DNA of 64,000 bases from Norana najaformis (Eukaryota > Annelida > Clitellata > Crassiclitellata > Hormogastridae). Of the stretch, positions 52,801 to 61,800 are shown one piece after another (position 1 is the stretch's first letter; every line of letters begins with the position of its first letter). The notes beneath the pieces were generated by a model. That model was given only the letters and a program-made list of their open reading frames with translations, was not told the origin of the DNA and made no database searches. Made by a program: the position numbers and the translations under genes. Where the stretch lies: NCBI GenBank assembly GCA_964023275.1, contig OZ029913.1:44886476-44950475 (forward strand). Reading direction: 5' to 3'.

Positions 52801-55800
52801 AGAAACATCACTTTGTGAGATATAGCATAATATTAAGTGTTTCGATAACTAACTCTAAAAGGGCAAAACTACTTCAAGATGACAACTGCTTCAAAAAGAC
52901 AAAATTGATACAAAAAGACTAAACTGATTCACTCATTTATTCGTTATTCCAAATGACAACATCATAAGATGCAGCACAGAAATACATTCTTCCTTCTGGC
53001 TGGAATTAATCCCTCCTAGGGGAGGGGTCAGCCTACAGCATACAAATACATTCTGGGATAAACAAAGGGCAGGCCCAGAAGGGACCGAGGTCCGGCTTAG
53101 TAGGATCACCTATGTGACATCAATTTTTTAAATAATGATTTACCAATACAACATCAGTCCAAATGGTCTTTAACTCAAACAGAACCAGAATAAACAAAAC
53201 CCAAAAACTTAATTAACATCTGCAATGCGTGTGTTATACGAATAGCTCAAATAACATATATACTGTCCATTTAAATAAGCATCCATAAGTTGTTTTGCAC
53301 AAATTTTCTTGAACAAATTTCATTTTTTTCAATAAACAAACAGATTTGGAAAAAACAATCTGCCAAAACTCTGAAGTTGTTTACAAATGGTACTAATCAT
53401 GACTTAGACTCTCTGGCGGGAATAATGAATCTGTACTGAAATTTAGAATTTAGAACCTAACAACAAGCTTCATCACAACATGAATATAACACAGTGTACT
53501 GATCCCATACTTTACTATCTTTAAAGACAACTTCACTATAGCACAACTTCGTCATAGTTTATGGTTCTCAAAGGGTTTCATAAAGGTGTTTTAGTATGTA
53601 ATGTAAAGACGACAATTTATATAGAACAGTTCAACAGCAAAAGCAATTTCAACAATCCGAAATTCATACATATATAAATATAACCCTTTTGTTTTGCAAC
53701 AAGAACATAAAAGAAAACTCACAAATATTCCCAAAAATATCATATTCGTTGGGAAACTACGTCGAACATCGGGACAACAAGCCAGCGCAATCAGGCAAAC
53801 AAACGTCAAAGCACTGCAAACAGAAAAAGAAGTTTCAACATTTCATTCATAGAATTATAACATTTACATGATTCTATCTTACTTACATATGCATAGAATG
53901 AATTTCCGTAACCAGCATAATAATTATTTGCCTATAGCTAAACTGCAGTTCTGAAGAAACTCGTACACCATTAGGAGCAACTTCAAGACGTACTCAGAGG
54001 GTGCTAAAAAACGTTCAGTGACATTACATTTAGTTAAAGTACTTTCATCATTTCAAGGTCAATTGAGTGTGCAGGTAGATTCAAATTTAATTGGATAAAA
54101 CTTACTGATAATTAAATTTACTAAAACAGAAAAATAGTAGAAATAGTAATGATAATCATTATTGTGATAATTATAATAATGACCAAATGCTTCTATATCA
54201 TGTTGAAACAATTCTTCCTCAACTAAAAATAAAAGTAATCTTAATATCTCAAGGCACAGATTCACATAACAGCAAAGATCATGCATGTTAGAAAAACATT
54301 ATTTTGTATTGTCTTGAAATTTGAGGAACAATTCTACCTCTTTAAAATAATCTGAGATTTAGTCCACATAAATCTCAGGCTACACAACATTACATTAAAC
54401 CAGGATCTGAGTCGTGAATGAACGTGTACTTACAACGCAGTTCCCCATAGCCACGGATTACTTGCAGAAAACACCTTGATGGGCTCACTATCAAAACAAT
54501 TCAATTCAAACAGTCAACAAATCAGACTGCCCACAAAAATGAATATATGATGATGGCCTACTCTACTATAATCTAAAGACTTTTTTGATAGCAGTTATCA
54601 TAAAATAAAGTGAAATCAGCCTATCAGACAGCTCTGATTGCCATCTATTGTGGGCAAGCAAGTGGCAAAGCGAGTTTTAAATCTCCACATGAATAAAGTT
54701 AAAATACTTTCAAAATAGATGGAACTAGACAGTGAATTTCAAAACCTTACACCAGCCACAGTGAAGTCTATGATAATTTTTATATCTAATATTTATATAG
54801 CACTTGTCAATGAAATTTCATTGCTGTCAGTGACTGGGCTTTGAACTGCCAACTTGCCTGATTCATAGCATAGTGCTAACTTGAGTAAAGAGTCTTTGAT
54901 TTTCTAAATTATATTTAAACAAACAGCTCAGTCACAACATTACTTGAATCACCACAGTTCCTAAATGCACAAATCCATTTTTGTTTGTTTGTAGCTCAAA
55001 CTTTCACTTTAACACATGAAAGATTATTGCTAAAAATCTTTGTGCTCTCTTAACAATGCATTTGCGTCCAGTTATATAGGCCCTTACAAGCCAAGACAGC
55101 AGACCACTACAAAATGGTTTACACCAGCCTCTCTCTATTGTGCAATCAGCTTTTTCCACAAACCGGCTGACTCATCACAACATAGGCCGTGCAAGCGCCC
55201 ACAATGAAATATGTGTCAGCAATAATTACTGCTGGTCAGCCCGCCTGCCTGCAGGGCTCTGCCAGCCAATCACACCTCCTCACCACATGTTTGGAGCTTG
55301 TCAGCCAGTACGTGATCCATGCATATAAAAACAAGTCAATTACCTGATGAATCATGGAAATTTTCTACACAAACGCTTGCCTAGAACTTGCTGACTAAGC
55401 AGCACAATATTACGTTCACAGCACCACAATCTAATAACAGGCAATAATCAATGGACAAACCTGCTCAAGGTCCCTACACAGTATTTATCTGAAACCTACA
55501 CTCTGCACATTCAGATGCAAGCACTGCCAATCAGTGGATGTCACAGAGAAAGTTACCATGTCACAATACCCAAACCCCACAAAAGTATGGTTAACTAACA
55601 ATTCAGTTAACTTGTTCACTATGATTTAGTTCCTTGGATTTAGCTAACTACCGTATTTTCCGGGCTATAAGCCACACCTGAGCATAAGACGCAGTGATGC
55701 AAAACAGCAAAATTTTTGTCAAATCAATACATAGGTGGCACTGGTTTGTAAGATGCACCCACACACAGATTTCCAGCCACGATGCGTACAAGTATGTTTG

Positions 55801-58800: not shown

Positions 58801-61800
58801 GAGGTGGCAGAGGGCGCAGGAAGAGGCGGGCTAGCAGCCAGAGGGCGAACTCTATCGGTTCTGTATGGATGCCGTCTGCAAGCCTAGTATGGCTTTCACA
58901 ATGTATATTCTGCGGTTGATAAATGTGATTTAATTTAATTTAAATCGTTATCGGTCTTTGCCAACTATATTTATAGCCTTGAAAACTTAATAAAATTTCC
59001 GCACATAAGCCACATTGTTAAATAACAAGAACCATTAGGAGTCTGTGTAAAAAACTGTCTTATATTCTGGAAAATACTTTAGGTAAAATGATGTAGCTAA
59101 ACCAGTCAGCTAGGGTTAACTAAAGGCAAGTAAGTATATTTGACTGGGGCACACCAGGTGCAGACGAGCATTAAAAAATTTCAATATAATCGCAGTTGCC
59201 TGATTGTCACTTGCAACCTGGGTCTGATTCTAGAGAGATACTTATTGATACCTGGTCACACGAACTTCCTTCGATGGATGCAGATCTCGCTGATCGATGC
59301 AGATCCTGAATCCATTAACTGCACCCGACAAGCATCATAAAGCGCAATATGTTTTTCAGTTACCCTTGTTAACTCGTTCATCCTGATGTGCCTTGATTAT
59401 TGCAATTCAATCCTTGCAAGCCCTGCCAAAGTTCTGGCTGCACTCCAGTCTGTCCTCATCTGTTCTGCCTGAGTCATGGCCAACAAGCCAACATATCCCA
59501 CATCTCGGAATATATGTGAGAGACACTACACTGGTTTCATGTTGCAGAGTAAACAGCATTCAAAATCATCCTGAAGCCAAATGCCTCATTTGTCGAGACT
59601 GCACCAGCATACATCAGAGAGCTCTGTTCCAGCCCCTTGAGTCAGCTGGGCTGGCAATTGTTGCAAGTGCAGCGCTGCCACACTTCAGCGTATGCCCGCT
59701 GTGCATTCCCATGAGTTGGACTGTACACATGGCACAGTCTTCCATTGCATTTGCATAAGGTTTTATTTGACTCTGTTCAGCATATATTTCTGCCCACCTT
59801 AAACTTGTTAGAATCAGTTAGATGGTCATGTAATTGTAATTGAAACTGCAAATTAATATAGTGTCACTTCAAGAGAACTTGTAACAGAGGCTCCTGACCT
59901 GACAACACAAAGCCTAGTGAAAAGAGAAAAAGAGAGGCCAAGAATTTCATGCCACAGGTTGCTGGCAACTTATTCCAAACAGATGAGCCAATAATTGGAA
60001 AGCTTCTATCCTGGACCAGGGAAGTTTGGACCGGAGGGACAGTTGAGTCACCTTGTGCGGCTCAGCACAGAAATCTGCAGCGGGACAGATGAGACCAAGA
60101 GGCTTAGCTCCTAAAGGTAAGATGAAGCACAATCTGCAAGAAAGTTATGCATAAACATCATACACTCAATGCATTTTGCAGTGCAGTTCCTCCTACATGA
60201 AACTAGATATATGCCCACTTTTGTGAAGTACTCAAAAGGCACTGTATTATGTATCTTGATAAATACATTTATACATACATACATATACCCATACACACAT
60301 CACATACATACATATAAATATGACCATAATTTGAACATCAATTTCAGTATAAAGGATGTGTAAGATAATGATGATAATGATGATGATGTTGATGAAGATG
60401 AAGATGAATGTGATGATGATGATAATTGTGATGATGATGGTAAAGAATGGCAGCTACTCACACAAACAGGAAAAGAACAATGAAGACAATAGTAACAGTC
60501 AGCTGGCAAAGCAGAATCCCATAAACTTTTCGTATGAATCCTAAAAAATATTCCACATCACTAATTAGGATACTCTAACAGTAGTTTATTTAGCACAATA
60601 AATATCTTAGCAACTGTCTTTCCTTAGTTATGCAATAATTTTTGCTAAATTTATATAGCACTGCTATATAATGCACAAATCCAAGTCATCAGTGACAGAC
60701 CACCAGTCACCATGTTACCATAACACAGAGGAATCCTATAATATCATCATTGCCAAAAGTAGCATTTTCAGCATATTCTAAGATGCAGAGTTTCTGATAG
60801 ACATGTCAGACCACCCATGTTTTAGCAATTTTGAAAGGTCCATATAAGATGCTATATAAATATCCAAAAGTCATACAATAAATACATATTTCTCTTTCTC
60901 AAGCACTCAGTTCATATTTGTTCACATCAGAACTTACACTGGTAATAACAATAATAATCCAATATTCCAAGAACTTCTATAGTGCCACTGTAATAATGCT
61001 CAAGGCGTTAGTTGATGGTGACTGTTAAGCAGTCTGTCTGCATAAATGTAGCAAATCCCTGGAGTCCTGTCAAAATCCACAAGAGCCAAATGGTCATAAA
61101 AGTTATTCTCTTTTCTATGGATAGCTAATGCAACGATTCTAGGACTGGAGGTACAAGTTCATGCTTGTACAAGACTGGAGGTACAAGTTCAAGTTTTAGT
61201 GATGGCTCTGGCAAAGGAGTTCCAGACCCTTCCAAGCTCCATCAAATTAGCTTTTAAAATGCCAATAAGAAGTGAGTTACAGCAGTCAAGACAGTTAAAA
61301 GCCCAAGGCATTTGCCAGACAAACCAAGGAAGAATAGGGAATGTGGTGCATAATCCTTCAGATGTCTCAAACATAGTAGCGGGCAGACCTACACATTGAG
61401 TTAATGTGTTCACTGAAAGATAGCTTACAAGAAAATACATGTACAACACCCAAATTATGTGCTGAATGGCTGCTTTGTATGACAGAATTGCCTGCGTGGA
61501 TTGTGAGGCATGACACTGAAAGCCATGACACTTAAAAACTGGGCTGTGACACTTAGCATCATGAAAATGACAGGCTGACAGCCACAGAACTGAGCCATGA
61601 TGATGAGCTGTGACACAAATAGCCATGACACTTAAAGCCATGACACTTACAGCTGTGAACTGATAGCCATGATATCAAGTCATGACACCAACAGGTAAAA
61701 CAATAAGGCTGCTTTACTTACCAAGTCGGACTGACTTCTCAGAGAAAGCAAAGGTCTGGCTTGAACCAAATTCCCCATCTTCAACAATGTTCTCTGTTGA

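What the first reader, a model, noticed from the sequence alone, without database searches (positions are those of the whole stretch)
55651..59079. Intact TA-flanked transposon whose only ORF belongs to a family usually left uncharacterised
Seen: matching terminal inverted repeats (CCGTATTTTCC / AAGTATTTTCC), TA at both edges, one unbroken 564-codon ORF with a TATA-like box upstream and AATAAA downstream. Known: proteins with [11 protein letters not shown] and GERFHQDI recur as multi-copy unnamed proteins in invertebrate genomes. Inferred: they are the transposase of a DNA transposon that duplicates TA. D264, D318 and E513 would be the DDE triad and C337/C340/H348/H350 an inserted zinc site.
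Basis: partly seen in the sequence, partly recalled or inferred. Interest (0 to 1): 0.78.

Follow-up and report, generated by a model that had tools for sequence, protein, structure and literature searches.

The report
Chapaev3-type transposon nested in another
The "TA transposon" is two mobile elements, one inside the other: the protein-coding one has its own ends and insertion mark and looks like an ordinary relative of the known animal Chapaev3 transposons, whose cutting enzyme is distantly related to the antibody-gene recombinase RAG1.

Summary
Ends, TAA repeat between A and T, single exon and the motifs D264, D318, C337xxC340, L385-H386, H494(4)H499, E513 fit the published description of Chapaev3 transposons (CMC/CMCT clade, Transib/RAG1-like). 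So the ORF is most likely a DDE transposase, but not of a transposon that duplicates TA; the zinc site is more likely C337/C340 with H494/H499 than H348/H350. The outer TA-flanked element (55651-55983 plus 58600-59079) looks non-autonomous; its ends resemble two other TA-flanked copies in the window. The only relative found is a decayed fragment near 42.1-42.4 kb, which keeps E513 but not H494/H499. No animal genomes are held and both AlphaFold models failed, so fold and triad conservation are untested and Chapaev3 membership has no tree. A useful correction; a known kind of element.

The parts
55984..58599 (-). inner element (2,616 bp), Chapaev3-type, CACTGG...CCAGTG, given in the orientation of its ORF
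55981..55983 (.). target-site duplication TAA, left copy (preceded by A)
58600..58602 (.). target-site duplication TAA, right copy (followed by T)
55984..55995 (+). inner terminal inverted repeat, exact 12 nt CACTGGCCAACA (imperfect homology continues inward to about 56100, weaker to about 56235)
58588..58599 (-). inner terminal inverted repeat, exact inverse of the left one
56303..57994 (-). 564-aa single-exon ORF, putative DDE transposase (stop codon 56300-56302)
   Evidence: motifs
58153..58158 (-). TATA-like box about 160 bp upstream of the ATG, inside the inner element
56182..56187 (-). AATAAA downstream of the stop codon, inside the inner element
55651..55983 (.). outer TA-flanked element, left part (CCGTATTTTCC end; TA at 55649-55650)
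58600..59079 (.). outer TA-flanked element, right part (AAGTATTTTCC end on minus strand; TA at 59080-59081)
42158..42391 (-). decayed relative of the transposase, C-terminal part only (about 40% identical over 80 aa to residues 460-537; stop-free stretch used for alignment 42119-42391)

Best explanation
A cut-and-paste DNA transposon of the Chapaev3 group (CMC/CMCT clade), 2,616 bp, inserted into a separate non-coding TA-flanked element, making a TAA duplication. Its single ORF would encode an RNase-H-type DDE transposase: an N-terminal cysteine-rich zinc region would bind the long inverted ends (inferred), D264/D318/E513 would hold the catalytic metal ions (inferred from motif frame), and C337/C340 with H494/H499 would form the structural zinc site as in RAG1 (inferred). 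The enzyme would cut at the CAC ends and join them to an A-TWA-T target with a 3-bp stagger (inferred from the group). Shown here: the ends, the TAA repeats, the nesting of one pair of ends in the other, the intact ORF inside, the motifs and their order. Not shown: fold, activity, empty site, other full copies.
For: Exact 12-nt CAC...GTG ends with longer imperfect arms, the best inverted match around the ORF. TAA on both sides between A and T, the rule published for Chapaev3 (TWA between A and T; PMC4079192 section 14); 30 of 156,604 other site pairs in the outer remnants obey it. ATWACACTGG and CCAGTGTWAT each occur once in the 64-kb window, at these ends. ORF, TATA-like box and AATAAA all lie inside the inner ends. 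564 aa in one exon, compared with 556 aa for Garfield_BM; most Chapaev3 transposases are said to have one exon, though Garfield and Merrow have two. Motifs C(2)C, LH, H(4)H named for Chapaev are present in order between D318 and E513: 44 of 20,000 residue shuffles give the ordered trio, 9 of 20,000 with positions as seen (position limits set after seeing the protein). D318 to C337 is 19 residues, as D708 to C727 in RAG1. [quoted passage not shown] N-terminal C60xxC63 and C96xxC99 with weak zinc-domain hits, zf-AD E 0.018 and DZR_2 E 0.019, both below the curated cut-offs, fit the zinc-finger 'Chapa' domain reported for Chapaev3.
Against: No sequence match to any named family: Pfam nothing above cut-off, PHROGs and NCBIfam 0, PDB 0 at E up to 10. 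No Chapaev3 protein sequence was available for a tree. Both AlphaFold models are unusable (mean pLDDT 34.5 and 36.8). In the decayed relative E513 and H497 are kept, but H494 and H499 are Y and Q, so H(4)H is not supported by the only comparison at hand. The best inverted match runs about 13 nt past the CAC ends into the flanks (from 55971), so the alignment alone does not fix the ends; that extension is at chance level (554 of 5000 random flank pairs score as high) and no direct repeat borders an end at 55971. The three motifs are short and two are shared by the whole CMCT clade. Only one full copy is seen, and no empty site was found.
Confidence: 0.81

Rival explanations
1. One reading: one transposon, 55651-59079, that duplicates TA, with the ORF as its own transposase; the inner repeat is a subterminal repeat.
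For: TA-flanked inverted ends; the ends resemble other TA-flanked elements in the window.
Against: A stronger pair of ends with its own direct repeat lies inside. The ends most like the outer ones belong to two 1.4-kb copies without this ORF: tblastn at E up to 10 finds nothing in them, and at E up to 1000 the part of the output that I saw shows only stop-broken or chance-level stretches there, the best at E 11. The motifs and the TWA rule fit Chapaev3.
Confidence: 0.05
2. The inner element is a CMC/CMCT transposon but not Chapaev3: EnSpm/CACTA (also CAC ends and 3-bp duplications) or an unnamed sister lineage.
For: EnSpm, Mirage, Plavaka, ESTA, Lanisha and Transib share C(2)C and H(3-4)H; CAC..GTG ends and 3-bp duplications are consistent with EnSpm. 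No tree could be built here. No named-family hit.
Against: The TAA repeat between A and T and the LH motif are those published for Chapaev3 and Chapaev; compact single ORF.
Confidence: 0.12
3. A domesticated host gene or a chance ORF, not a transposase.
For: Only one intact copy in the window; no fold obtained.
Against: It is enclosed by matched ends with a target duplication and has a decayed relative elsewhere in the window; 564 codons without a stop.
Confidence: 0.02

Closest known systems
Chapaev3 transposons (Garfield, Merrow, Conan; PMC4079192)
   Same: 5'-CAC...GTG-3' ends, TWA duplication between A and T, transposase with C(2)C, LH, H(4)H; in the part of its Table 1 that I saw, elements with a near-complete transposase are 1,865-2,455 bp with 461-562 aa.
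   Different: 2,616 bp, longer than those; Garfield and Merrow have two exons, here one. Sequence identity to them could not be measured.
Transib / RAG1
   Same: [quoted passage not shown] 19 residues from second D to first C in both. PMC4411706 places Chapaev3 as one of four clades of Transib in the wide sense.
   Different: No sequence match to any PDB chain at E up to 10; Transib target duplication is 5 bp (recalled), here 3 bp.
EnSpm/CACTA
   Same: CAC ends, 3-bp duplication, C(2)C and H(3-4)H.
   Different: No CACTA transposase model among Pfam hits; its target is not tied to TWA (recalled).
TA-flanked CCGTAT...CTATAAG elements of this window (19186-20549, 31518-32932)
   Same: Outer ends of the finding match their ends at 14-17 of 21 positions (left) or 12-15 of 21 (right), next to TA.
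   Different: No shared interior found by blastn at E up to 1; which superfamily moves them is unknown.

Membership tests
Chapaev3 | 5'-CAC...GTG-3' terminal inverted repeats | tested here: met
   CACTGGCCAACA exact at both ends; feature from PMC4079192
Chapaev3 | 3-bp TWA target duplication, A before and T after | tested here: met
   A-TAA | element | TAA-T; rule from PMC4079192. One copy only; no empty site found
Chapaev3 | C(2)C, LH, H(4)H motifs | tested here: met
   C337xxC340, L385-H386, H494(4)H499 in order between D318 and E513; H494/H499 not kept in the decayed relative
Chapaev3 | DDE triad in an RNase H fold | tested here: inconclusive
   D264, D318, E513 in a suitable frame; models at pLDDT 34.5 and 36.8 not usable
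Chapaev3 | N-terminal Chapa zinc finger | tested here: inconclusive
   two CxxC pairs and weak zinc-domain hits; reported for Chapaev3 in PMC4411706; no Chapa model at hand
Chapaev3 | clusters with Chapaev3 transposases in a tree | not testable with these tools
   no Chapaev3 sequences at hand; scans of viral and prokaryote contigs gave no relative
   ORF is enclosed by stronger CAC..GTG ends with TAA repeats inside the TA-flanked unit
EnSpm/CACTA | match to a CACTA transposase profile | tested here: inconclusive
   no such Pfam model among hits up to E 10; how well Pfam covers animal EnSpm was not checked

The most novel reading that the evidence does not exclude
Probability: 0.12. Interest if true: 0.45.

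Novelty: new member of a known kind. Interest (0 to 1): 0.27.

Why it matters
It shows how a nested insertion can pair one element's ends with another's gene: taken at face value, the TA-duplicating transposase could have been put forward as a new kind. It ties the motif-bearing protein to a published group with a known target rule, so genome copies can be classed by looking for CACTGG-type ends and TWA repeats. If the copy proves recent, the intact ORF is a candidate for an activity test.

Tried and rejected
Relatives were sought and not found: viral contigs by protein, by patterns from GERFHQD, MEx[14 protein letters not shown] and PPLHIKLG (5, 1, 0 and 3 stretches) and by alignment A1 (46 stretches matched, 0 of 46 a relative); genome contigs by the GERFHQD pattern (58 stretches); phage and plasmid records by tblastn (no match). 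tblastn of the ORF gave a best E of 0.042 against the 63 loci and 0.045 against all 67 loci; I take them as chance. A scan for outer-type ends in viral contigs gave 0.

Literature: searches of the open-access library for CCGTATTTTCC (4 papers), CACTGGCCAACA (1 paper) and the peptide motifs (0 papers) gave nothing that, by title, is about an element of this kind. Papers seen: PMC4079192 (section 14 whole, other passages); PMC12730594, PMC4411706, PMC4914335, PMC3630058, PMC12220107, PMC7325037 (passages only); all others only as search listings.

Structure: two AlphaFold runs failed. I give their strand/helix order no weight at mean pLDDT below 40, and ran no fold search. A pogo origin for the outer element was considered because of the TA flanks; the passages seen in PMC7325037 gave no terminal sequences to compare, so it stays unassigned. 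Ends further out than CACTGG (at 55971) were considered because the alignment runs past them, and rejected.

Corrections: my note numbers the H(4)H pair 496/501; one search shows 494/499, used here.
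Full report
What is there. The inverted arms (30 nt, 77%) include 6 nt of flank on each side. The ORF is on the minus strand, 57994-56303, 564 aa.

The repeat search also lists an inverted pair at 55980-56006 / 58577-58603 (27 nt, 81%). Its core is CACTGGCCAACA, exact at 55984-55995 and 58588-58599; these are the only two exact sites in the window, among 10 with up to 2 mismatches where 5.65 are expected. Local alignment of the two arms scores 113 against a maximum of 82 in 1000 first-order Markov resamplings. 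With stricter scoring, arms taken from the CAC ends inward score 45 against a maximum of 32 in 1000; over 1.5 kb on each side of the ORF the best match runs from 55971 to 56100 and scores 52 against a maximum of 35 in 500, and the longest exact inverted match is 13 nt, ACACTGGCCAACA. The best match thus runs some 13 nt outward past the CAC ends. That extension is no better than chance (score reached by 554 of 5000 random flank pairs), and an end at 55971 has no direct repeat beside it, whereas the CAC ends have TAA on both sides. Outside the exact ends lie A-TAA on the left and TAA-T on the right. The strings ATWACACTGG and CCAGTGTWAT occur once each in 64 kb, at these places. The ORF, a TATA-like box (58153-58158) and AATAAA (56182-56187) all lie inside. 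The element carrying the ORF is therefore 55984-58599, 2,616 bp.

The outer element. Taken alone, the outer inverted repeat is not above chance: 41 against a maximum of 73 in 1000 resamplings for the 300-nt end pieces, and in 1-kb flanks the best match lies elsewhere with score 27, reached by 82 of 1000. But the window holds two copies of another TA-flanked element, 19186-20549 and 31518-32932, 96% identical over 1,328 aligned bases. Copy 31518-32932 has no stop-to-stop ORF longer than 121 aa, and none of 130 aa or more lies in 19186-20549. The window's ORF has no tblastn relative in either copy at E up to 10; at E up to 1000 the part of the output that I saw shows only chance-level stretches there, the best at E 11. 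All three exact ATAAGNCRCA sites of the window are in the outer ends, although sites with up to 1 mismatch are no more frequent than expected (38 against 33.65). I conclude that the outer ends are probably real ends of a TA-flanked, non-autonomous element into which the inner one inserted. Its superfamily is open.

Which kind the inner element is. PMC4079192 (section 14 read in full; further passages) describes Chapaev3: CAC...GTG ends, TWA duplication with A before and T after, shown there with empty sites; Garfield_BM of 2,289 bp with a 556-aa transposase in two exons; motifs C(2)C, LH, H(4)H; most other Chapaev3 transposases in one exon. The inner element has these features as far as sequence can show them. 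Other pairs of sites in the outer remnants meet the A-TWA / TWA-T rule in 30 of 156,604 cases, and any 3-bp match in 1.8%. The ordered motif trio appears in 44 of 20,000 shuffles of residues 319-512, and in 9 of 20,000 with C(2)C in the first 40 and H(4)H in the last 40 residues, limits I set after seeing the protein. [quoted passage not shown] In RAG1 the zinc site is C727/C730 with H937/H942 between D708 and E962 (PMC4914335, passages). Here D318 to C337 is 19 residues, as D708 to C727 is. PMC4411706 (passages) reports an N-terminal zinc finger, Chapa, in Chapaev3. The window ORF has C60xxC63 and C96xxC99 there and sub-threshold zinc-domain hits.

What speaks against or is missing. None of the libraries searched (Pfam, PHROGs, NCBIfam, PDB sequences) names the protein. 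No related locus was found in the collections searched (viral contigs, one pattern in prokaryote genomes, phages, plasmids); none of these holds animal genomes as such. The one comparison available is a decayed fragment at 42158-42391, minus strand (40% over 80 aa, E about 1e-12; 41% over 81 aa, E 1e-11). It keeps E513, H497 and the MExRYQG.W block but has Y and Q at H494 and H499, and does not reach D264 or D318.

Mechanism. Cut-and-paste transposition by a RAG1/Transib-like DDE enzyme acting on CAC ends, with a 3-bp stagger at A-TWA-T, is the best-supported account. The ends and the TAA repeat are seen; the chemistry is inferred from the group.

Verdict. A nested pair of DNA transposons. The coding one is most likely a new member, with an unbroken ORF, of Chapaev3 (0.81), otherwise of another CMCT lineage (0.12). 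Interest is modest.

Noticed in passing
19186-20549 and 31518-32932: Two TA-flanked copies, 96% identical over 1,328 aligned bases, with ends CCGTATAAACTCGACTATAAG / CCGTATATACCCGACTATAAG (some ends differ by one base) and no long ORF: a probably recent non-autonomous element.
   Followed up: partly
42158-42391: Decayed fragment of a second, about 40% identical transposase of the same kind, C-terminal part only.
   Followed up: partly
326-1532: Non-LTR retrotransposon remnant: reverse transcriptase (RVT_1, E 2.4e-30) at 326-1042, and a following ORF in another frame that looks like its continuation but has no Pfam hit.
   Followed up: no
13648-15633 and 16968-17447, minus strand: Probable exons of a host gene with double-stranded-RNA-binding motifs and a long glycine/arginine-rich region.
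   Followed up: no
26863-28863 and 63601-63768: Several related repeat units of about 110-220 bp in both orientations, 75-88% identical, possibly a short interspersed repeat family.
   Followed up: no
30382-30528 and 38141-38323: Tandem arrays with 29-bp and 31/62-bp units.
   Followed up: no
55960-55983 joined to 58600-58615: The presumed target of the inner element is an imperfect palindrome (CATCCAAT...ATTGAATG); as inverted similarity of the two flanks it is at chance level.
   Followed up: partly
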